Shown piece after piece: positions 259 to 10,317 of a DNA stretch of 10,317 bases. The notes under the pieces are model-generated. The model saw nothing but the letters and a program-made list of their open reading frames with translations. It did no database searches and had not been told where the DNA came from. Both the position numbers and the translations under genes were made by a program. Every line of letters starts with the position of its first letter. Position 1 is the stretch's first letter. The stretch is from Nocardioidaceae bacterium (GTDB lineage: Bacteria; Actinomycetota; Actinomycetes; Propionibacteriales; Nocardioidaceae), in contig JACCSH010000047.1 of assembly GCA_013813125.1 (NCBI GenBank), positions 1 through 10,317 of the forward strand, read 5' to 3'.

Positions 259-3200
259 TTACCCTCCCGGTGACGCCGTCGTCTCAGTGGGCTCGGTCGT
301 CGTCCCCGTCGGTGGAGTCGTCGTGGTTGGCGAAGTCTCCGTCGGTGCAGTCGTCTCTGTGGGTGTGTCCCCCGGTTCCGGATCGTCTCCAGAACCCTCG
401 GCGGCTTGCTGCAGTGCGATCGCCTTCTCGACCCACTCCATAGCCTCCTCATTCGCCTCTTGATAGGCGCCCAGGTCACCCGCTTCGTAGGCTGTCTGCG
501 CCCGGACGAAAGCCGCCTCCGCCTCGCTCAGGTACTTCGCCAACTGCTCTCGGCGGTTATCCGGACCGCCACCGCCGTTCCCCGGACCGGGATCGGGATC
601 ATCAGACGTCGGTGGCGTCTCCGTTGGCAGGTCCTCGAGTCCGAGTGCGTTCGCGAACGCCTCCTCGAAGGAGGTGCCAAGTCCAACCTTCCCCACCTCT
701 TCTTCGCCACCTTCACCGACCGCGACCAGCACGAACTGGAGAATCGGATAGCTACCTGTCCCCTCACGGCGGGTGTACACGGGCTGGACGTAGAGCAACT
801 CGTCACCGATCGGTAACGTCAACAGGTTGCCCATGTCGACCTGGTTTCCCTGCGTCTTGTACTTCAACAGAGCCGCCGAAACGACCGGGTCGCTCTGCAA
901 CGCGTTCGCCACCTGCCCGGGACCACTCACTGCGTTGTCGCCGGGCAATTCGAGCACGGTGAACTCCCCATACCGCTCACTCGCCGCATCGGCGTTCACC
1001 GTCATGAAGCTCGCAAGGTTCTGCCGGTTCTCCGGCACATAGACGCTCGTCAACGAGAACTGCGGCTCCTCGCCCGGGATCTTCACCGACAAGTAGAAAG
1101 GCGGCTGCGCCTCCTGGGCCGGGGTGACGGTCGGGTCTTCAGGAACCGTCCAGTTCTCCGATCCGCCGTAGAAGGTGTTGGCGTCCGTGACGTGATAGCG
1201 GGAGAAGAGCTCGCGCTGGACCTTGAACAGGTCCTCGGGATAGCGCAGATGCGCCAGCAGCGACTCCGGGATCTCCGTCTTGTCCACGACCACCTCGGGG
1301 AAGGCACCTCTCCAGGCTCGGAGCAACGGGTCCGTCTCGTCCCACTCGTAGAGCGTGACCGTGCCGTCGTACGCGTCGACGGTCGCCTTAACCGAGTTCC
1401 GCATGTAGTTGATGTCATCCGACGCCTGCCCGACCACTGCGGCCTCGTCGGTGAGCGAGTCGCTGGTTGCGTCGCTCAGATCAACCAGGTTCGACATCGG
1501 ATAGTTGGCAGTCGAGGTGTACCCGTCGAGAATCCATAGCAGTCTGCCGTCGACAACGGCTGGGTACGGGTCGCCGTCAACCGTCAACCAGGGCGCGACC
1601 TTCTGGACCATGTCGTGCGGTCGGCGGTCATAGATGAGCCGCGACTCGCTGTCGACGCGTCCCGAGAGCAGGATCGACGACTCCCAGAACTTCGCGGCGT
1701 AAAGCAGCTGGGTGAAGGTCGAGCCGATCGGCACGCCACCTGCGCCGTCGTACGTCGAGTTCTCGTCGGCGCCATCGCCAGTGCCCGTGTCGGGAATGTT
1801 GAGCTCGACCGGCTCCTTGCCGGCCTCTGCACCGACAATCGAGTAGGTGGCGCCCAGCTCCCCGAAGTAGACACGCTGCTCGAACTCGCCGAGCCTGCCC
1901 ATCGACGGCAGGTTCTTCTGGGCGAAATCTGGCTGACCACTGGCAGTGCGCCGGTCTCCGTAGGCCGCCACCACGCCGTACCCGTGGGTGAAGACGGTGT
2001 GGTCGTTGGTCCAGTTGCGCTGGTCGGCCGGCACTCCGGCGAGGTCGATCTCTCGAACGGCGAGCACCACGTCCTGCGGCTCGGTCTCACCCTCGAACGT
2101 GTAGCGGTCGACGTCCAACACGTCCGGCACGGTGTAAAAACCCCGCACCTGCTGCAACTGCTCGAACGCGTCGGAAACAAGCCGCGGGTCGATCAGCCGC
2201 ACTCCCGGAAGATCCGCGGCCTGCCGCTGCAGCTGCTCAGCGGTGTCCGTTGTCGTGCCCGCATAGTCCTGCATCTTGATGTCCTCGAGGTCGTACGCCG
2301 TTCGGGTCGCCTCGATGTTCAGCTGGATGTATGCGGCCTCCTTGTCCGCCTCGGTGGGCTTGACCTGGAAGCGCTGAACGAGCGCCGGCCAGATTCCGCC
2401 GATCAGCACCGCCGACAAGATCAGCAGGCCGAACCCCAGGACGGGAAGCATCCAGCCCGGCCGAAAGACGTTGCCGAAGAACAGCAGCGCACAGATGATC
2501 GCGATGATGGCGAGGATGTTCTTCGAGGGCAGCACCGCATTGGCGTCGGTGTAGGTGATGCCGGTTATCAGGTTCCCCTCGGAGAACGCCAACCCATAGC
2601 GGTCCAGCCAGTACGACGCCGCCCGCACCAGCATGAACAGCCCGAGCAGCACCGACAGCTGCACCTGAGCACCGGACGCCACCTTGTTGCGCCGCGCCTG
2701 CAGACGAATGCCGCCGTACAGGTAGTGGGTGGCAAGGGCGAGGAGAAACGAGATCACCAAGACGGTGAAACCGAAGCTGATCAAGAAGCGGTACCAGGGG
2801 TAGCCGAACACGAAAAAGCCGATGTCGCGGTCGAAGTAGACGTCGGTCTCCCCGAACGGAACGCCGTGTCGCCACAGCAGGTACGTCTTCCACTGCCCAG
2901 CCGCGGTGGCCCCACCGAACAGGAACGCCAACAACCCAATCCCCATCAGCACCCAATGCCGGATGGGGTCGATCACGTCTTGGTAGCGCTCGACCGTCGG
3001 GTTGCGATAGCCGTCACCGATCAGGATCGGGCGCATCCGGAACGCCAGCAAGGCGTTCCCCACCGCGACCGCCGCAAGCACCAGCCCGAAGACGACGAAC
3101 AGGCCGACGCGGGTCCACAACATGGTCGAGAAGACGCTGCTGTAGTTGAGAGAGGCGAACCAAAGCCGCCCGGTCCAAACCTCGACGAACACCGAGAACA

Positions 3201-3315
3201 ACATGACCAGCGCAAACGCCACTGCGAGTGTGGGCAGGAGCGCACGTGGTCGTCGCGACGGCGGACGACGTGGTCGAACCGGTCGGCCTTCGTCCTCATT
3301 GAAGATGCTGCTCAC
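259..3315 (-). CDS. UPF0182 family large membrane protein
   Basis: This 1018-residue protein matches the actinobacterial UPF0182 family (Rv3193c type), whose function is unknown. About seven hydrophobic segments are visible near residues 27-46, 70-92, 120-140, 176-200, 217-235, 266-283 and 288-310. The Arg-rich N-terminus (residues 11-25) suggests it lies in the cytoplasm, which would place the roughly 700-residue region after segment seven outside the cell. A Gly/Pro linker, a helical Ala/Glu-rich stretch and an extreme Thr/Pro tail (17 Thr in the last 38 residues) close the protein. The start is GTG at 3315, which shares GTGA with the stop of the upstream PPA1309 gene. AAGGA at 3326-3322 serves as ribosome binding site six bases before it. 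It is the last gene of the minus-strand cluster. Family assignment is firm; topology is inferred from hydrophobicity. Confidence 0.95.
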   Translation of the reverse strand: MSSIFNEDEGRPVRPRRPPSRRPRALLPTLAVAFALVMLFSVFVEVWTGRLWFASLNYSSVFSTMLWTRVGLFVVFGLVLAAVAVGNALLAFRMRPILIGDGYRNPTVERYQDVIDPIRHWVLMGIGLLAFLFGGATAAGQWKTYLLWRHGVPFGETDVYFDRDIGFFVFGYPWYRFLISFGFTVLVISFLLALATHYLYGGIRLQARRNKVASGAQVQLSVLLGLFMLVRAASYWLDRYGLAFSEGNLITGITYTDANAVLPSKNILAIIAIICALLFFGNVFRPGWMLPVLGFGLLILSAVLIGGIWPALVQRFQVKPTEADKEAAYIQLNIEATRTAYDLEDIKMQDYAGTTTDTAEQLQRQAADLPGVRLIDPRLVSDAFEQLQQVRGFYTVPDVLDVDRYTFEGETEPQDVVLAVREIDLAGVPADQRNWTNDHTVFTHGYGVVAAYGDRRTASGQPDFAQKNLPSMGRLGEFEQRVYFGELGATYSIVGAEAGKEPVELNIPDTGTGDGADENSTYDGAGGVPIGSTFTQLLYAAKFWESSILLSGRVDSESRLIYDRRPHDMVQKVAPWLTVDGDPYPAVVDGRLLWILDGYTSTANYPMSNLVDLSDATSDSLTDEAAVVGQASDDINYMRNSVKATVDAYDGTVTLYEWDETDPLLRAWRGAFPEVVVDKTEIPESLLAHLRYPEDLFKVQRELFSRYHVTDANTFYGGSENWTVPEDPTVTPAQEAQPPFYLSVKIPGEEPQFSLTSVYVPENRQNLASFMTVNADAASERYGEFTVLELPGDNAVSGPGQVANALQSDPVVSAALLKYKTQGNQVDMGNLLTLPIGDELLYVQPVYTRREGTGSYPILQFVLVAVGEGGEEEVGKVGLGTSFEEAFANALGLEDLPTETPPTSDDPDPGPGNGGGGPDNRREQLAKYLSEAEAAFVRAQTAYEAGDLGAYQEANEEAMEWVEKAIALQQAAEGSGDDPEPGDTPTETTAPTETSPTTTTPPTGTTTEPTETTASPGG

Positions 3316-3872
3316 ATCACGTCCTTGTCTGGATCAAGAGTCTCACGCAGAGCCTCTACCAACGCTGGTACGACGTCCGGGCCATGGATGAGCGCATCAT
3401 CACTGTCATGAGAGCGCAGCCGCAACACACAATGCGCCTCACCGGTGCGAAGCACCCCCACCACGATCCGCACATCCTCGTGCCTCTCGTGCTGAGCGGC
3501 GAATCTCGCCGCCAGGTCGGGGTCAGTTGGCACCTCGTCCTCGGCGCCCGGAGGCAGGACCAACCGTTCCACCACAGCCAGGACACCGGCCACCTCAGGG
3601 GGCCAGGTGATATCGCCCAACAGCTCCTCAAGGGGCCAGTCGGGGTCTTCTAATTCCTGCTCCACGGGCGTGAACGGGTCACCGAAGCCGTCACTGATCC
3701 CGAGCTCAGCAGCCAGCTCCGGCTCCGCCGCCGCAAGCTCTGCTGTCGGCGCCAAGGCGAACAGTCGCGCCGGCTGGTCCCAGCCGGCCTGGCTCGCGTG
3801 CTGTTCCACCTCGACCGCCGCCATCCGCAGACCGAGCGCGTCCGTCGTGAGACTACCGTCAGCACCTGTCAC
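3312..3872 (-). CDS. PPA1309 family protein
   Basis: This 186-residue acidic, apparently soluble protein resembles the PPA1309 family, an actinobacterial family of unknown function usually found beside UPF0182 and PDZ/Lon genes. Recognisable stretches are GWDQPARLFALAPTAEL near residues 28-44, ITWPPEVAGVLAVVERL in the middle and the HEDVRIVVGVLRTGEAHCVL region towards the C-terminus. There is no signal peptide or membrane segment. I chose GTG at 3872 because GGAGGG at 3886-3881 lies eight bases before it and the start forms a GTGA overlap with the stop of the PDZ protease. The upstream GTG at 3881 begins inside that ribosome binding site and is unlikely to be used. Its 3' end overlaps the UPF0182 start in the same GTGA manner, so translation of all three genes is probably coupled. 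It may assist the two membrane proteins, but that is inference. Confidence 0.88.
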   Translation of the reverse strand: MTGADGSLTTDALGLRMAAVEVEQHASQAGWDQPARLFALAPTAELAAAEPELAAELGISDGFGDPFTPVEQELEDPDWPLEELLGDITWPPEVAGVLAVVERLVLPPGAEDEVPTDPDLAARFAAQHERHEDVRIVVGVLRTGEAHCVLRLRSHDSDDALIHGPDVVPALVEALRETLDPDKDVM

Positions 3873-4921
3873 CCGTCGCACCCTCCGACCACTGTCTCGT
3901 TCCCGGCCCGAAGAGACTCGAGCGCCTCGACCGCCTCGACCATTGTGGCCACCGCGACGAGGCGGATCTCCTCGTCATCGACGAACCTCCCGACGTCAGC
4001 GCAGTCGCCAGCCGGCACCAAGAAGACCGTCGCGCCGTCGTCGCGCGCTCCGGCGATCTTTTGCTGTACGCCACCGATCTCGCCAACCGTGCCGCTCGCG
4101 TCGATCGTGCCAGTCCCGGCGATGTGCGCTCCCCCGGTGAGCGCACCGGGTGTGAGCTTGTCATAGATCCCCAGCGAGAACATGAGCCCGGCACTCGGTC
4201 CGCCGATCTCCTGGCCGAGCTCGATGTCGACCTCGAAGGGTGGGTCGAAGTCGTCGCGCAGTGTCACTCCCACGCGCGACTGTGACGAATCGTCGGGCGA
4301 CGGAGCCGTCGTCACCTCGACCTCTCGGCTCGCGCCGTCGCGCGTGATCTCCAGGGTGATGCGGGTGCCCGGCTCTACTGCGCTGATGACCTCAACGGCG
4401 TCCTGGGTGGAGAGGATGGGGGTCGAGTCCACGGCGACGATCTCGTCGTCCTTTCGTAGCACACCGTCCGCTGGGGCGCCTGGTGTCACGGCCTGCACCT
4501 TCACCCGCACAGCGTCGACGCCCGCCTGGGCGAGTCCGACGGCACGTGCCGAGTCCATCGAGTCGAGCATCTGGACCTCGTTCTCCTGCTTCACCTGCTC
4601 CACGCTTTGCTCCGGTGGGTACACCACTTCGCGCGGCAAGATGATCTGCTCGGTGGACCACCACGCGCTGAGCACGTCAGGCAGGTGAACGGCTGATTCC
4701 GGCGATGTCACGGACACCGTGGTCAGGTCGAGGTTGCCAGCTGTCGGATAGGTCCGAGCCCCTTTGATGACGATGACCGGTTCGCCCTTGAACTCGCCGA
4801 TCGTGTTCTCCGTCAGCCCGGGCGACATCACGACGTACGGCACCGGGACCAAGACGGCCACGCCGATGAGGACGATGAGAGCCAAGACGGCCACCGACAA
4901 CGAGGTGGTACGGCGAGTCAT
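3869..4921 (-). CDS. Membrane-anchored PDZ and Lon-type (S16) serine protease, YlbL/Rv3194c-like
   Basis: This 350-residue protein has an N-terminal membrane anchor (about residues 8-31, after a TRR basic start), so its bulk should face the exterior. A PDZ-like domain covers roughly residues 125-205 and a Lon proteolytic (S16) domain roughly 215-345. The catalytic pair looks intact: Ser243 in the GGPSAG motif and Lys288 in GGVQQKIAGA. No AAA+ ATPase module is present, as in the Bacillus YlbL group, so proteolysis should be ATP-independent. The start is ATG at 4921 with a GAGGT-type ribosome binding site about eleven bases upstream. It follows the small membrane protein gene by 13 bases and overlaps the PPA1309 gene by GTGA. 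Substrates are unknown; the UPF0182 ectodomain encoded two genes downstream is a plausible partner (inference). Confidence 0.93.
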   Translation of the reverse strand: MTRRTTSLSVAVLALIVLIGVAVLVPVPYVVMSPGLTENTIGEFKGEPVIVIKGARTYPTAGNLDLTTVSVTSPESAVHLPDVLSAWWSTEQIILPREVVYPPEQSVEQVKQENEVQMLDSMDSARAVGLAQAGVDAVRVKVQAVTPGAPADGVLRKDDEIVAVDSTPILSTQDAVEVISAVEPGTRITLEITRDGASREVEVTTAPSPDDSSQSRVGVTLRDDFDPPFEVDIELGQEIGGPSAGLMFSLGIYDKLTPGALTGGAHIAGTGTIDASGTVGEIGGVQQKIAGARDDGATVFLVPAGDCADVGRFVDDEEIRLVAVATMVEAVEALESLRAGNETVVGGCDG

Positions 4922-4934
4922 GCGTTCGATGACC

Positions 4935-5207
4935 TCACCGCTGCGTGTCGGGAGAAGAGATGGCGCGGCTCGAAGACCTCCGGATGACCACGCCGTGGCT
5001 GGGCTCCGAGAGCCTGACGCTCGAGCCTTCCCGGGAACGGACCTTGGCCTGGGGCACGGGCCGCTCGAGCGCCTTCTTCAAGCGAAGCTGGGCTGCGGCG
5101 GAGTCGTCTCGACGGATGTCATCGCGGGCCCGGCCGACCCAGGCCGCCCAGACCATCGCCAAGGCGGTCGTGGCCAAGGGCGGCACCAGCCACCACAACA
5201 CCTCCAC
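4935..5207 (-). CDS. Small single-pass membrane protein, hypothetical
   Basis: From the GTG at 5207 this encodes 90 residues with one hydrophobic segment almost at the N-terminus (VLWWLVPP through AAWVG, about residues 3-25). A basic, charged and probably cytoplasmic tail follows. An ATG at 5297 would add 30 residues and overlap the moaE end by 19 bp, but I see no ribosome binding site for it. GGAGG lies five bases before the 5207 GTG, and starting there puts the membrane segment at the very N-terminus. A GTG two codons later is a further option. The gene sits 71 bases after moaE and 13 bases before the PDZ protease gene, on the same strand, so it is probably co-transcribed. No known domain is recognised; it could be a small membrane adaptor for the neighbouring protease. 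Confidence 0.72.
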   Translation of the reverse strand: MEVLWWLVPPLATTALAMVWAAWVGRARDDIRRDDSAAAQLRLKKALERPVPQAKVRSREGSSVRLSEPSHGVVIRRSSSRAISSPDTQR

Positions 5208-5278
5208 CGCGACCTCCGTCTCGTCTGCTTCGCTGAAAGCCCAGCCTACGTCGGCGCTGGCGATGATCCCTGTCACTG

Positions 5279-5704
5279 CTACGGCGTGCCCACCCATTCG
5301 TCGCTGCCGTCGCTGAAGCGCTGGTGCTTCCAGATCGGCACGGTCTCCTTGAGCTGGTCGATCAGGTGCCGCGCCGCCTCGAACGACTCCCCCCTGTGAG
5401 CGCAGGCGACCGCGACAACGACCGCGATGTCACCGACCTCCAGATCTCCCACCCGGTGCACAGCCGCCAGCCGAACCACATCGAACTTGTCGACCACGTC
5501 GTCGGCCACGCTGCGCAGCGCCGCCAATGCCGTGGGATGTGAGCTGTAGCCCAGCTGGTCGACCGGTCTGCCGCCGTCGTAGTCGCGAACGGTGCCGACG
5601 AACAGGGTCACTCCGCCGGCTTGGGGGTGCTGCACGGCGTCGTACACCTCGCTGATCTCCAAAGCCGTGTCACGGATGGAGAGCAGCGCAATGGCATCGG
5701 TCAT
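5279..5704 (-). CDS. moaE: Molybdopterin synthase catalytic (large) subunit MoaE
   Basis: This 141-residue protein is a full-length MoaE. With the thiocarboxylated small subunit MoaD it inserts the two dithiolene sulfurs into cyclic pyranopterin monophosphate to make molybdopterin, in the cytoplasm. The family signature is clear: FVGTVRDYDGG near residues 35-45, HRVGDLEVGD at 83-92, CAHRGESFEAARHLIDQLK at 101-119 and VPIWKHQ at 122-128. Lys119 and Lys126, the catalytic lysines at the same numbers in E. coli MoaE, are present, as are Arg40 and Arg104. ATG at 5704 is preceded by TAGGGT with exactly six bases between, which suggests a leaderless mRNA. It heads the minus-strand cluster of membrane proteins. 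No moaD or other molybdenum-cofactor gene is seen in the window. Confidence 0.95.
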   Translation of the reverse strand: MTDAIALLSIRDTALEISEVYDAVQHPQAGGVTLFVGTVRDYDGGRPVDQLGYSSHPTALAALRSVADDVVDKFDVVRLAAVHRVGDLEVGDIAVVVAVACAHRGESFEAARHLIDQLKETVPIWKHQRFSDGSDEWVGTP

Positions 5705-5910: not shown

Positions 5911-7332
5911 ATGGCTGACCTTCCCCCCCACTCTGGTGACGATCAATCCGACGAAAATCCCCGCAATCCCTTTGCGGGGACACCCCTTGAGCAGATGTTC
6001 GGCGCTCTCGCCGGTGGTGACACCAGTGGTCTGCAGGCGATGTTCGGACAGCTTCAACAGATGTTCGCCCCGCACGAGGGCATCGTCAACTGGGAGATGG
6101 CCCGCGACGTCGCCCGCAAGTCGGTCGCCCAAACCGCTGACCGCTCCCCTGACGCCGCTGACCAGACTCGGATTCTCGACACCGCCCGGCTCGCTGAGCA
6201 CTGGCTCGACGGCGTGACCGACTTCCCGGCGACTGGGGTTGTCGGGGTTGCGTGGAGTCGCGCCGAGTGGATCGAGTCGAGCATGCCCGCTTGGCGCGAG
6301 CTCGTGGAACCCGTTGCAGAGAGCGTCGTCAGCGCCTTGGGCGGAGCCCTCCCGGCCGAGGCGCAGGCAATGGCCGGTCCGATGATGGGCATGCTGACCC
6401 AGATCGGCGGCGCGATGTTCAGCCAGCAGATCGGCCAGGCCATCGGCGCCCTCTCCCGGGAGGTGGTGTCGGCAACGGACATCGGCTTCCCCGTGAACAC
6501 CGACGGCAAACCTGCCTTTGTGATCCAGAACGCCCGAGACTTCGGCGAGGGTCTGGCGGAGAACGAAGACGACATCCTGCTCTATTTGATGTTGCGTGAG
6601 TGCGCCTACCAGCGGCTCTTTGCCTCGGCGCCTTGGCTGCGCGCCTACCTGTTCTCCGCGGTAGAGGACTACGGGCGCGGTGTCAGCCTCGATACTTCGG
6701 CGATCGAAGAGAAACTGGGCCGGCTCGATCCGACGAATCTGGCTGGAATGCAGGAGGCCATGACCGGTGGGTTGTTCGACCTCGATCCCACACCCGCCCA
6801 GCAACTCGCGCTGACCCGACTGGAAACTGCTCTGACCCTCGTTGATGGCTGGGTCGATGAGGTGGTCGGACAGGCAACGGACAAAGCAATGCCACAGGCC
6901 CAGGCGTTGCGGGAGGTCATCCGTCGGCGACGTGCCTCGGGTGGACCCGCCGAGGCCATCCTCGCCGCCCTGGTCGGTTTGGAGCTTCGCCCTCGGCGAG
7001 TGCGGGACGCCTCGGCCCTGTGGGGCGCCCTCCGTGCGGCTGAAGGCCCGGGTGCTCGGGACGCCGTCTGGGCCCACCCCGACCTCATCCCCACAGCCGC
7101 CGACCTCGACGACCCGCTCGCCTTCGCGCAGCGGACCCGCGAGGCCGACGAGATCGACGTCCAGTCAGCCGACTTCGATGCCCAGCTCACCGCGCTGCTC
7201 GAGGAAGGCAGACCTCCAGCCAGCGACGAGCCAGCGAAACCCTCCGCCAACGCCGAAGGCGACGCCGGCGGTGAAGGCGCGGACCCAGACGATCCGTCCG
7301 GCAACGAGGAGGGCGAGCGCACCAGCGAGTGA
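5911..7332 (+). CDS. DUF2342 (zincin_2) family protein lacking zinc ligands
   Basis: This 473-residue protein resembles the DUF2342/zincin_2 family (Rv3195 type), often annotated as zinc-dependent metalloprotease. It has a disordered N-terminus, a region NWEMARDVARKSVA near residues 60-73, a Gly/Met-rich hydrophobic stretch at about 153-185, a core with LREC-AYQRLFASAPWLRAYL at 228-246, and an acidic Glu/Asp/Gly-rich tail after residue 432. At the place where active relatives have HExxH it reads R229-E-C-A-Y233. The later ligand region reads VDGWVDEV (311-318), with no His. Only Glu230 remains, so it is predicted not to bind zinc or cleave peptides. ATG at 5911 follows the leaderless-type promoter. 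The next gene downstream encodes a metallopeptidase with an intact motif. Family is confident; loss of catalysis is inferred from motif comparison. Confidence 0.88.
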   Translation: MADLPPHSGDDQSDENPRNPFAGTPLEQMFGALAGGDTSGLQAMFGQLQQMFAPHEGIVNWEMARDVARKSVAQTADRSPDAADQTRILDTARLAEHWLDGVTDFPATGVVGVAWSRAEWIESSMPAWRELVEPVAESVVSALGGALPAEAQAMAGPMMGMLTQIGGAMFSQQIGQAIGALSREVVSATDIGFPVNTDGKPAFVIQNARDFGEGLAENEDDILLYLMLRECAYQRLFASAPWLRAYLFSAVEDYGRGVSLDTSAIEEKLGRLDPTNLAGMQEAMTGGLFDLDPTPAQQLALTRLETALTLVDGWVDEVVGQATDKAMPQAQALREVIRRRRASGGPAEAILAALVGLELRPRRVRDASALWGALRAAEGPGARDAVWAHPDLIPTAADLDDPLAFAQRTREADEIDVQSADFDAQLTALLEEGRPPASDEPAKPSANAEGDAGGEGADPDDPSGNEEGERTSE

Positions 7333-7797: not shown

Positions 7798-8358
7798 GTG
7801 GGCCTTTCGAGCGCAGACGTGAAGATCGACGTCCGTCGATCGCGTCGACGCAAGCGCACGGTGTCGGCCTACCGAGACGGCGAGACGATCGTGGTGATGA
7901 TCCCGGCCCGGCTCAGCCAAGCAGAAGAGCGGCAGTGGGTCGCCACGATGGTCGACCGGATCGCCACGTCCGAACGCAGGCGCCGTCTCGACGATGCAGA
8001 CCTCGCTGCGCGCGCCCAAGCCTTGTCAGAGCGCTACCTCGACGGCTTGGCCGCGGCGTCTTCCGTGCGCTGGGTGACGAACCAGAATGCCCGCTGGGGT
8101 TCGTGTACACCGGTTGATGGCTCGATTCGGCTCTCCACACGGCTCCAAGGGCTGCCGTCGTATGTCATCGACTACGTGCTGCTGCACGAGCTCACCCACC
8201 TGCTGATCCAGGGCCACGGTGAGGAGTTCTGGACCTGGGTGCACCGGTATGACCGAAGTGAACGCGCTCGCGGATTCCTCGACGGCGTCGCCGCCGCGAC
8301 AAGGCGAAACGAGATCGAGAAGGCGGCAAACCACGCTGCAGAACCAGCCACCGAGTGA
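7798..8358 (+). CDS. YgjP-like (DUF45) zinc metallopeptidase, also called M48 family
   Basis: This 186-residue protein has the hallmarks of the YgjP/WLM-like metallopeptidases. An Arg-rich N-terminal strand region (VRRSRRRKRTVSAYRDG, residues 12-28) comes first, then the WGSC motif (W100-C103) and the zinc site HELTH (H130, E131, H134), with a probable third ligand at H140 in QGHGEEFW. All key residues are present, so it is likely an active zinc peptidase, probably cytoplasmic since no signal peptide or membrane helix is seen. Substrates of this family are not well established. The start is GTG at 7798; no other start lies between it and the in-frame stop at 7723, though the GTG at 7819 is a possible shorter alternative. 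It follows the DUF2342 gene after 465 bp and is probably transcribed from its own leaderless promoter. Confidence 0.93.
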   Translation: MGLSSADVKIDVRRSRRRKRTVSAYRDGETIVVMIPARLSQAEERQWVATMVDRIATSERRRRLDDADLAARAQALSERYLDGLAAASSVRWVTNQNARWGSCTPVDGSIRLSTRLQGLPSYVIDYVLLHELTHLLIQGHGEEFWTWVHRYDRSERARGFLDGVAAATRRNEIEKAANHAAEPATE

Positions 8359-8597: not shown

Positions 8598-8756
8598 ATG
8601 GCGGAGACCTGGAGCGGTGAGTTCTACTGCGTGAAGTGCAAGGCCAAGCGCGAGGCTAGTGGTGAAGTCCGTGTCAACGATAAGGGCACGCGGATGGCCA
8701 AGGCCACCTGTCCTGAGTGTGGCACCAACCTCAACCGCATCCTCGGCAAGGCCTGA
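8598..8756 (+). CDS. DUF5679 small zinc-ribbon protein
   Basis: This 52-residue protein carries two CxxC pairs, C11-VK-C14 and C38-PE-C41, separated by 23 residues, the layout of a zinc ribbon. It matches the actinobacterial DUF5679 family, which has no assigned function. The middle is basic and polar (KAKREASGEVRVNDKGTRMAKA), which could suit nucleic-acid binding, and it ends NLNRILGKA. There is no membrane segment or export signal. The ATG at 8598 is set by GAGGAGG at 8586-8592; an upstream in-frame GTG at 8574 would place that site inside the gene. The strong ribosome binding site suggests high expression. It stands alone between hairpins: a leader stem at 8544-8571 and a possible terminator overlapping its stop codon. 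The next gene, which encodes the ThiF-like protein, starts 360 bp downstream. Confidence 0.9.
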   Translation: MAETWSGEFYCVKCKAKREASGEVRVNDKGTRMAKATCPECGTNLNRILGKA

Positions 8757-8826: not shown

Positions 8827-9006
8827 CCGAGAGTTCCACCGGACCGCTGCAGTCAAAACGTGCGCCCCAGCAGTCGGGTCAGCCGCATCGTCGCGCGCGC
8901 CGCACAGTCGTCCGCGCCGAGAGTTCCACCGGACCCAATGCAATCGGGCCTGCGCACCAGCGATCGGGCCGGCCGCAGAGTCGTCCGCGCCGCAGAGTCA
9001 TCCGCG
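8827..9006. repeat. Two 90-bp tandem repeat units
   Basis: Units 8827-8916 and 8917-9006 are head-to-tail. The first 19 bases (CCGAGAGTTCCACCGGACC) are identical, and the full units agree at about 65 of 90 positions without any gap. Most differences lie in positions 20-32 of the unit. The period is a multiple of three, so the plus frame is preserved, but no start or ribosome binding site supports a protein. The repeat fills much of the 360-bp gap (8757-9116) between the DUF5679 and ThiF-like genes; nothing else is evident in that gap except the shorter repeat at its end. Confidence 0.8.
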
Positions 9007-9020
9007 CCGCGTCGTCGTCC
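8973..9020. repeat. 17-bp tandem repeat nested at the end of the 90-bp repeat
   Basis: CCGCAGAGTCGTCCGCG (8973-8989), CCGCAGAGTCATCCGCG (8990-9006) and a 14-base shortened copy (9007-9020) are contiguous. A related copy, CCGCACAGTCGTCCGCG, ends the first 90-bp unit at 8900-8916. This points to local slippage or recombination amplification within the larger repeat. Confidence 0.8.
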
Positions 9021-9116
9021 GCGCCAGCAGAGGCATCGGAGCTGGCCTGTGGATGGCGAACGCACCTTCCGCCAGCTTTTTGGCACGCTGAGATCCTCAT
9101 CAGAAGGGACTCTCGC

Positions 9117-10010
9117 GTGCGACCCATGCTCCGCCCCGGCCTGCAGATTCTGCGCCGCGACATGTTCACACTCCAGCTTGGGCTCGACTGGCCAGGGCTC
9201 GCGGTGGTCGAGGAGACGCCGGTGGTTCGGGCAGTGCTCGACGCGATCGACGGCTACCGAGACGTGGCCGGTGTCGTGTTGTGCGCAATGGACGCAGCCG
9301 GCCTTCCACGCTCAGATTGCGAAGCTGCTCTGGCTTTGCTGGTTGAGTGTGGCGCGGTTGTGGCCCAGACAGCGACCTCGTCCGCTGTAAGTGAGCCCGC
9401 CTGGACAGCGCTGTCGTTGCTGGCTGGCCCAGACCACACGGCGGCTGACCTGCTGCGGGAGCGAGCAGACTGCTCTGTCTATGTCGATGGCGTCGGTCAA
9501 GTCGCCTCCCAGGTCCACGCCGCCCTCGCGCTCGCCAAGCTCAAGCTCAGTCAAACAGCGGCCGGTGCCGGTCTGGTCGTCATGGCCACCGACAGCGAGC
9601 CGGCACGATCCCGCGTCGACGACCTGATGCACCTCGGGGTGCCGCACCTGTGGGTCTGCCTCCGTGACCTGGTGGGAGTTCTCGGCCCGTTCGTCATACC
9701 AGGGCATACCGCCTGCCTGCGCTGTGTCGACGCCGCGCGCACCGACCGAGACCCGGCGTGGCCGGCCCTGCTTGACGCTGCGGCTGCGCGGCCGCTGCCG
9801 GTCACCGCGAGCGACCCGGTCCTGTGTGCTCTGGTCGCGTCGTGGGCGGTTCTCGAGGCGCAGACGTGGGCTGCCGGTCTGCACCCTCAAACGAGTGATC
9901 GGGTAATCGAAGTCCCCTACGGTTGCGGCGCGGTTCAAACCGAAGAATTCGACCTTCATCCGCACTGCGGATGTGGATGGCCTACCTGGCAGGACACAAT
10001 GGGCGCATGA
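9117..10010 (+). CDS. Orphan TOMM cyclodehydratase-like protein (leader-binding plus ThiF-like)
   Basis: This 297-residue protein resembles the partner half of azoline-forming cyclodehydratases in thiazole/oxazole-modified peptide pathways. Residues 1-85 look like the leader-peptide-recognition winged helix (RPGLQILRRD, LQLGLD, a helix-rich segment to VVAQ). Residues 118-290 resemble a shortened ThiF/E1 fold with a weak glycine motif (DGVGQVASQ), the PFVIPGHTACLRCVDAARTDRDPAWP stretch (191-216), and probable zinc ligands C200/C203 with C284/C286 in HCGCGWP. No YcaO partner, dehydrogenase or clear precursor gene is in the window, so it may have another job. GTG at 9117 has AGAAGGGA at 9102-9109 seven bases upstream; ATG at 9126 is an alternative start. 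Its TGA overlaps the ATG of the ABC1 kinase gene, implying coupled expression. Confidence 0.82.
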   Translation: MRPMLRPGLQILRRDMFTLQLGLDWPGLAVVEETPVVRAVLDAIDGYRDVAGVVLCAMDAAGLPRSDCEAALALLVECGAVVAQTATSSAVSEPAWTALSLLAGPDHTAADLLRERADCSVYVDGVGQVASQVHAALALAKLKLSQTAAGAGLVVMATDSEPARSRVDDLMHLGVPHLWVCLRDLVGVLGPFVIPGHTACLRCVDAARTDRDPAWPALLDAAAARPLPVTASDPVLCALVASWAVLEAQTWAAGLHPQTSDRVIEVPYGCGAVQTEEFDLHPHCGCGWPTWQDTMGA

Positions 10011-10317
10011 ACGACCTGCCCCGCAAAACCGTAGCGCGGACCGCACGGCTGGCGTCCCTTCCGTTGGGCTATGCCGGGCGGGCGACGCTGGGGTTGGGCA
10101 AGAGGATTGGCGGTGCCCCCGCCGAGGCGGTCGCCGCCGACGTGCAGCAACGCACCGCTGAGCAGCTGTTCAAAGTCCTGGGGGAGCTCAAGGGTGGCGC
10201 CATGAAGTTCGGCCAGGCGATGTCCATCTTCGAGTCGGCGCTCCCAGAGGATCTGGTAGCCCCCTACCGGGCCACGCTGACCCGGCTGCAGGACTCAGCG
10301 CCACCGATGCCGGCAGC
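10007..10317 (+). CDS. ABC1/UbiB (AarF) family atypical kinase, N-terminal part, cut by the window edge
   Basis: Translation from ATG at 10007 gives 103 complete residues and remains open at the right edge. The motif KFGQ (K67-Q70) within LKGGAMKFGQAMS is the KxGQ signature of ABC1 atypical kinases (UbiB/AarF/ADCK), which folds over the active site. LPEDLVAPYRATLTRLQDSAPPM after it is also typical. The Ala-rich loop and catalytic motifs would lie beyond the window. Family members affect quinone or lipid metabolism in other organisms; the actinobacterial branch (Rv3197 type) has no settled substrate. It overlaps the ThiF-like gene by ATGA, so the two are probably translated from one mRNA. In mycobacteria the next gene is whiB7, which could be expected past the edge. 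Confidence 0.9.
   Translation, partial: MNDLPRKTVARTARLASLPLGYAGRATLGLGKRIGGAPAEAVAADVQQRTAEQLFKVLGELKGGAMKFGQAMSIFESALPEDLVAPYRATLTRLQDSAPPMPA

What the first reader, a model, noticed from the sequence alone, without database searches (positions are those of the whole stretch)
9117..10317. Orphan TOMM-type ThiF-like protein translationally coupled to an ABC1 kinase
A protein with a leader-recognition-like N-terminus and a cysteine-bound-zinc ThiF-like domain overlaps an ABC1 kinase gene by ATGA, with no YcaO or dehydrogenase nearby. In known azoline pathways this protein works with YcaO, which uses ATP. Here the coupled ATP-using partner would be an atypical kinase instead. Such a pair could form a new peptide- or protein-modifying or cofactor-handling system. 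The coupling is seen; the function is speculative.
Basis: partly seen in the sequence, partly recalled or inferred. Interest (0 to 1): 0.7.

Follow-up and report, generated by a model that had tools for sequence, protein, structure and literature searches.

The report
Orphan peptide-clamp protein beside macrolide-binding ATPase
Most sampled members of one large class of Actinobacteria carry a protein built like the peptide-holding part of antibiotic-peptide factories but without its usual enzyme partner or its own catalytic site, usually just before a macrolide-binding ATPase gene, so it is probably a repurposed peptide or protein clamp of unknown client.

Summary
Observation confirmed. Window 9117-10010 (+) encodes a 297-aa protein whose stop overlaps, by ATGA (10007-10010), the start of an ABC1-kinase gene cut by the contig end. 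Profile, AlphaFold and PDB comparisons show a full-length RRE + zinc ThiF/E1 fold (MccB, TruD, LynD, PaaA). The adenylating residues are gone across the family (N, R, Q, K: 0 of 49 sampled), so it is a pseudo-E1. The ABC1 protein is an orthologue of MABP-1 (Rv3197), a macrolide-binding ATPase. The protein is in 107 of 118 sampled class genomes (four weak hits dropped), sits in a conserved block Zincin_2 - YgjP - DUF5679 - this protein - MABP-1 - WhiB - UvrD, and 81 of those 107 genomes show no YcaO. Best reading: a repurposed, non-catalytic peptide/protein clamp of the WhiB-MABP-1 locus, MABP-1 being a frequent but not obligate partner. Client unknown. A new variant of a known kind; I found no functional study in the searched library.

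The parts
9117..10010 (+). orphan RRE-pseudo-E1 protein (ThiF-like, TIGR03882-like), 297 aa, GTG start
9117..9368 (+). N-terminal RRE-like winged-helix domain, residues about 1-84 (beta 2-32, helices 35-77, strand 81-84)
   Evidence: AF2 secondary structure; PqqD Pfam match in 3 of 39 members; PaaA match spans profile 4-182
9393..9986 (+). E1/ThiF-fold domain, residues about 93-290; the ATP-site segment of the Rossmann fold is largely missing in the window protein
   Evidence: alignment
9714..9725 (+). zinc knuckle 1, C200xxC203
   Evidence: invariant in 39 of 39; 49 and 48 of 49 in the set not fetched by pattern
9966..9974 (+). zinc knuckle 2, C284xC286
   Evidence: C284 invariant, C286 at least 90%; CxxC...Cx(1,2)C pattern in 46 of 49
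10007..10010 (+). ATGA stop/start overlap (translational coupling inferred)
   Evidence: compared
10007..10317 (+). N-terminal 103 aa of the ABC1-family ATPase MABP-1, cut by contig end; a MABP-1 remainder lies on another contig of the same genome (C178, L116 2512-3648), next to WhiB and UvrD genes
8598..8756 (+). DUF5679 small zinc-ribbon protein, frequent upstream neighbour
   Evidence: 46.4 bits, cut-off 27
7798..8358 (+). YgjP/SprT-like metallopeptidase, conserved neighbour
5911..7332 (+). Zincin_2 (TIGR03624) metallopeptidase, conserved neighbour

Best explanation
The protein is a repurposed RiPP-type peptide clamp: its RRE winged helix binds a segment of a peptide or protein client, and its zinc-stabilised, ATP-incompetent E1 fold serves as scaffold, not as an adenylating enzyme. 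It belongs to the ancestral WhiB/MABP-1 locus of its class and most likely presents its client to, or holds it for, a locus-encoded partner, in most lineages the adjacent ATPase MABP-1. Shown: fold (by model and profile), loss of the adenylation site, conserved cysteines, class-wide conservation, linkage, purifying selection in the pairs tested, usual absence of YcaO. Inferred: client binding, loss of ATP binding, and MABP-1 as (non-obligate) partner.
For: Fold. Pseudo-E1: N/R/Q/K 0 of 49, second Asp 1 of 49, NLxRQ 0 of 49 against 5 of 5 in active-looking RRE-E1 relatives, while C1/C2 are kept in 49/48 of 49. Distinct group: 26 orphan rows on one side of a branch with 96/95 support from active RRE-E1 and YcaO-linked TOMM proteins. 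Conservation: 111 of 118 class genomes at E 1e-5, 107 after dropping four weak ones. Association with MABP-1: both 92, ThiF-like only 15, MABP-1 only 1, neither 10 (Fisher p 3e-7, not corrected for phylogeny); adjacent in 79 of 92. Purifying selection: dN/dS 0.07-0.23 in six pairs (window vs L001 0.15, vs L002 0.18) and 0.23 in two Microbacterium loci without MABP-1. MABP-1 binds erythromycin and hydrolyses ATP (PMC6208485, whole text).
Against: No direct evidence of a client or of contact with MABP-1. Mirror-tree partial correlation with ABC1 is nil (0.008 over 27 loci, -0.011 over 41). Fifteen genomes keep the protein without a MABP-1 match, and four near relatives have MABP-1 elsewhere. One genome keeps MABP-1 without it (G282/L125). 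The ATGA overlap is the minority arrangement (7 of 42). It is the fastest-evolving of the six proteins compared (mean distance 1.13 vs 0.49-0.67), odd for an essential scaffold.
Confidence: 0.42

Rival explanations
1. Neighbour by inheritance: the clamp serves its own, MABP-1-independent role, and linkage merely reflects an ancient gene block. Translational coupling is incidental.
For: Found without MABP-1 in 15 of 107 genomes of six families (f1, f8, f65, f68, f81, f83); mirror-tree partial r 0.008; MABP-1 lies elsewhere in G277, G289, G299, G330 while DUF5679 stays just upstream of the clamp in three of these; the whole block including UvrD and Zincin_2 is syntenic.
Against: MABP-1 is found without it in only 1 of 93 genomes; overlap or short spacing recurs in separate lineages.
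Confidence: 0.35
2. Protease adaptor: as an RRE hands a leader peptide to a peptidase in lasso-peptide pathways (recalled), this clamp hands a client to the upstream Zincin_2 (or YgjP) metallopeptidase.
For: Zincin_2 is its most frequent upstream neighbour (56 of 60 loci of the spread set), including loci where YgjP, DUF5679, MABP-1 and WhiB were not found (L128, L209, L210); highest partial rate correlation of the clamp in the six-gene set (0.41, permutation p 0.001).
Against: In the four-gene set UvrD correlates as well or better (0.495 vs 0.406), and ABC1 also correlates with Zincin_2 (0.51), so the signal may be generic; clamp distances are near saturation; Zincin_2 remains where the clamp is lost (L125, L130); no substrate known.
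Confidence: 0.15
3. A DUF5679-specific partner: the highly conserved 55-aa zinc ribbon encoded just upstream is the client.
For: DUF5679 directly upstream on the same strand in 55 of 72 genomes with both, also in 19 genomes where MABP-1 is not seen adjacent (three of these only because of contig breaks); strongly conserved C-terminus in 12 aligned members.
Against: No DUF5679 match in 35 of the 107 genomes with the clamp, among them all 9 of family f3 and all 8 of f4; DUF5679 present in 3 genomes without the clamp.
Confidence: 0.05
4. Ordinary TOMM cyclodehydratase partner of a YcaO encoded elsewhere.
For: Annotation model TIGR03882 matches all 39 members of A1 at E 0.01; 26 of 107 carriers do have a YcaO somewhere.
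Against: 81 of 107 carriers have no YcaO match; where one exists on the same contig it is at least 160 kb away (others lie on other contigs); a true TOMM C-D protein scores 111.9 against 28-42 bits here.
Confidence: 0.03

Closest known systems
MccB, RRE-E1 of microcin C7 (PDB 3h5a, 3h5n, 3h9j)
   Different: MccB keeps the E1 residues (alignment) and binds ATP (3h5n title); here these residues are absent. No peptide gene known here.
N-terminal half of TruD/LynD (cyanobactin heterocyclases) and other TIGR03882 TOMM C proteins
   Same: RRE + E1-like clamp fold (TMq 0.74 with TruD)
   Different: There fused or clustered with a YcaO ATPase; here mostly no YcaO, lower TIGR03882 score, separate group in the tree
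Ocin-ThiF-like TOMM F proteins (TIGR03693), PMC4603692 (passages read)
   Same: Stand-alone RRE-ThiF protein that binds the precursor and works with the cyclodehydratase
   Different: That paper found F proteins outside HCA/thiopeptide clusters in only two cases; here a class-wide chromosomal gene. TIGR03693 is not among the 19 families matched.
MABP-1 (Rv3197 / MSMEG_1954), PMC6208485 and PMC8696161
   Same: Orthologue of the coupled ABC1 gene (5e-119 to 5yjz)
   Different: PMC6208485 (whole text) does not discuss the upstream gene; in PMC8696161 (opening part and passages seen) 'operon' and 'upstream' do not occur

Membership tests
TIGR03882 TOMM leader peptide-binding protein | curated score 36.9 bits | tested here: not met
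   34.9 bits; 38.7 only in a frame read past the stop. Of seven further members scanned, one passes (L029 41.7)
TIGR03882 TOMM leader peptide-binding protein | RRE + zinc E1-like fold | tested here: met
TIGR03882 TOMM leader peptide-binding protein | YcaO partner in the cluster or genome | tested here: not met
   0 in own genome, which is 76% complete; no match in 81 of 107 carriers, none within 160 kb on the same contig
TIGR03882 TOMM leader peptide-binding protein | precursor peptide with leader and Cys/Ser/Thr core | tested here: inconclusive
   only DUF5679 recurs as a small ORF upstream; it is modelled as a folded zinc ribbon; no systematic small-ORF search
E1/ThiF/MoeB/MccB adenylyltransferases | ATP-site residues (DxD, NLxRQ, K) | tested here: not met
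   N, R, Q, K 0 of 49; second D 1 of 49; NLxRQ 0 of 49 against 5 of 5 active-looking relatives
E1/ThiF/MoeB/MccB adenylyltransferases | CxxC...CxC zinc-site cysteines | tested here: met
   46 of 49 by pattern; zinc itself not testable
MABP-1 (ABC1/UbiB-like) | sequence relation to MABP-1 over the whole protein | tested here: met
   window fragment 1.2e-36, contig C178 remainder 2.0e-118, relative L001 5e-119 to 5yjz
MABP-1 (ABC1/UbiB-like) | NCBIfam exception cut-off 800 bits | tested here: not met
   only 4 of 118 genomes reach it; an orthologue, not the named resistance protein
MABP-1 (ABC1/UbiB-like) | macrolide binding | not testable with these tools
   -

The most novel reading that the evidence does not exclude
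A RiPP-type leader-binding clamp was taken out of peptide biosynthesis early in the evolution of this actinobacterial class and became a core-genome adaptor that, without YcaO and without adenylation, delivers a cellular peptide or protein to the UbiB-like ATPase MABP-1 (and in lineages lacking it, to the Zincin_2 peptidase) in the WhiB7 antibiotic-stress locus.
Probability: 0.25. Interest if true: 0.75.

Novelty: new variant of a known kind. Interest (0 to 1): 0.5.

Why it matters
RREs are used to mine genomes for RiPP clusters. A class-wide RRE-pseudo-E1 gene usually without any YcaO would be a standing false lead in such mining and, if it binds a cellular client, an example of RRE use outside natural-product synthesis. 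It may also be a missing component of MABP-1, whose resistance mechanism its discoverers say needs further investigation (PMC6208485).

Tried and rejected
Active E1: rejected on missing residues. TOMM azoline partner: rejected as a rule. TDRDPAW as an invariant family motif: seen in A1 but an ascertainment effect, since the loci were fetched with that peptide pattern; in 49 sequences not fetched that way (window included) only the window has it exactly, and 17 match DRDxxW. LysW-like carrier role for DUF5679: Pfam LysW match is E 0.73 and Foldseek gave nothing at E 0.001; dropped. A small CxxC ORF in place of DUF5679 upstream in nine of the loci lacking it: no candidate seen. Literature: Rv3196 as a whole word in one paper, as 'Hypothetical protein' in a SNP table; MSMEG_1955 and SCO5193 not found (locus names recalled); DUF5679 0 papers. 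That Rv3196 is the orthologue is recall plus the Mycobacterium-titled locus L028 with the same gene order; its sequence was not compared. Complex prediction was not possible. Native fusions of the two proteins: none noticed in the loci held, not searched wider. Not done: correction of the co-occurrence test for phylogeny; a wider sample than 118 class genomes.

Full report
OBSERVATION. The window is a whole contig (C171, 10,317 bases) of a 1.80-Mb, 332-contig, 76%-complete genome. The 297-aa ORF at 9117-10010 and the ABC1 ORF starting at 10007 overlap by ATGA. The nearest relatives found are two Nocardioidaceae MAGs, 79 and 76% identical; in L001 the ATGA overlap is also present. L002's contig ends just after the gene.

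PSEUDO-E1. Five related RRE-E1 proteins from the same class (L117, L118, L119, L120, L122) carry the E1 signature NLxRQ (5 of 5). In 49 members (48 hand-picked from the class sample without use of the fetching pattern, plus the window) N, R, Q and K are 0 of 49 and the second Asp 1 of 49; the first CxxC cysteines are kept in 49 and 48 of 49. In a set of 84, mostly pattern-fetched, second Asp, N, R and Q are 0 of 84 and K 1 of 84. The window protein also lacks most of the ATP-site segment of the Rossmann fold (alignment). A tree of 33 proteins (26 of the 49 orphan members) puts the orphans on one side of a branch with 96/95 support; outgroup branches are long.

THE ABC1 PARTNER. It is MABP-1: NF050082 at 1.2e-36 on the fragment, 2.0e-118 on contig C178, where WhiB and UvrD genes also lie (L116). 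MABP-1 (Rv3197) is a domain-swapped dimeric UbiB-like ATPase that binds erythromycin and confers inducible macrolide resistance in mycobacteria, mechanism unresolved (PMC6208485, whole text). MSMEG_1954 confers resistance likewise (PMC8696161, abstract, opening part and passages). MSMEG_1954 is 1.7-fold lower in a pafBC mutant (PMC5656591, passage).

SYNTENY. Of 130 relatives found by peptide patterns the best 80 were kept (49 titled Streptomyces). Among the 80: ABC1 74, UvrD 67, WhiB 66, YgjP 63, Zincin_2 61 (many loci are cut by contig ends, so these are lower bounds). Of six without ABC1, two end at the contig end (L002, L011) and four (L060, L065, L072, L075; Microbacterium, Leifsonia, Ornithinimicrobium) have the protein directly facing UvrD. 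Across the phylum (246 genomes) 29 match: 24 in the window's class, and five outside it with only 25-26 bits; one in-class genome without a match is listed. In 118 class genomes: protein in 111, MABP-1 in 93 at E 1e-40, YcaO in 30, DUF5679 in 75. After dropping four weak hits: both 92, protein only 15, MABP-1 only 1, neither 10. Of the 92: 79 adjacent on one strand, 5 on one strand 1.4-2.8 kb apart, 4 elsewhere in the genome, 1 on the opposite strand, 3 split over contigs (window included). The association is strong but phylogenetically uncorrected.

AGAINST A DEDICATED PAIR. (a) Fifteen genomes of six families keep the protein without a MABP-1 match; in the one such pair of loci tested it is under purifying selection (dN 0.14, dS 0.60, two Microbacterium loci). 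(b) In G277, G289, G299 and G330 MABP-1 lies elsewhere. (c) G282 has DUF5679 and MABP-1 but no clamp gene between them. (d) Mirror-tree over 27 loci with six genes: ThiF-ABC1 partial r 0.008 (p 0.46), ThiF-Zincin_2 0.41 (p 0.001), ThiF-UvrD 0.27 (p 0.014); over 41 loci with four genes ThiF-ABC1 -0.011, ThiF-UvrD 0.495, ThiF-Zincin_2 0.406. Distances for the clamp are near saturation, so this is weak evidence, but it does not favour the pair.

YCAO. 81 of the 107 carriers have no YcaO match, 26 do; for YcaO genes on the same contig as the clamp the nearest is 160 kb away. A true YcaO-fused TOMM protein of the class (L121) scores 111.9 bits for TIGR03882, against 28-42 bits for the eight orphan members scanned singly.

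INTERPRETATION. I file it as a repurposed RRE-pseudo-E1 clamp, related to but not a member of the TOMM C/F proteins. Its likeliest use is to bind a peptide or protein client within the WhiB-MABP-1 locus, with MABP-1 a frequent, non-obligate partner. Inheritance of gene order and a protease-adaptor role are live rivals. That the WhiB gene is whiB7 is inferred from its place beside MABP-1 (recall; PMC13118837 says an ABC1 kinase gene is syntenic with whiB7 in Streptomyces, passage).

NOVELTY. Searches for Rv3196/Rv3197/whiB7, MABP-1, RRE/ocin-ThiF terms, SCO5193/SCO5192/wblC, the TOMM-binding-protein name with whiB7/ABC1, DUF5679, and MSMEG_1955/1954 brought up no functional study of this protein in what I saw of them (listings, and the passages and texts named above). 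Most subscription journals are not in the library.

Noticed in passing
window 8598-8756: DUF5679: a 55-aa zinc ribbon with a strongly conserved C-terminus (NRILGKA), directly upstream of the clamp in 55 of 72 genomes having both; no paper in the library names it.
   Followed up: partly
L125 (G282) 3216-4862: DUF5679 directly upstream of MABP-1 with the clamp gene missing, while G303 of the same genus has it.
   Followed up: no
G277, G289, G299, G330 (L222-L226, L213, L214, L126): In one genus of the window's family MABP-1 lies away from the WhiB locus: about 0.33 and 1.77 Mb off in two genomes, on another contig in two.
   Followed up: partly
window 8827-9026: Imperfect direct repeats (19-nt and 59-nt units, 90-nt spacing) in the gap between DUF5679 and the clamp gene.
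   Followed up: no
G000 contig C178 (L116): Very likely the contig to the right of the window: rest of MABP-1, convergent WhiB, UvrD. Not joined.
   Followed up: partly
literature on the M. tuberculosis locus: A small gene Rv3196A, by its number next to the clamp and MABP-1 genes, rises with whiB7 and other resistance genes in an alkX mutant's expression table (PMC9430723, passage); the authors could not confirm the whiB7 rise by qRT-PCR.
   Followed up: no
window 259-5704: Left half holds a 1018-aa ORF (UPF0182-like, recalled), a PDZ/Lon-like ORF at 3869-4921 and a MoaE-like ORF at 5279-5704 (recalled names); the PDZ ORF recurs in the syntenic block.
   Followed up: no
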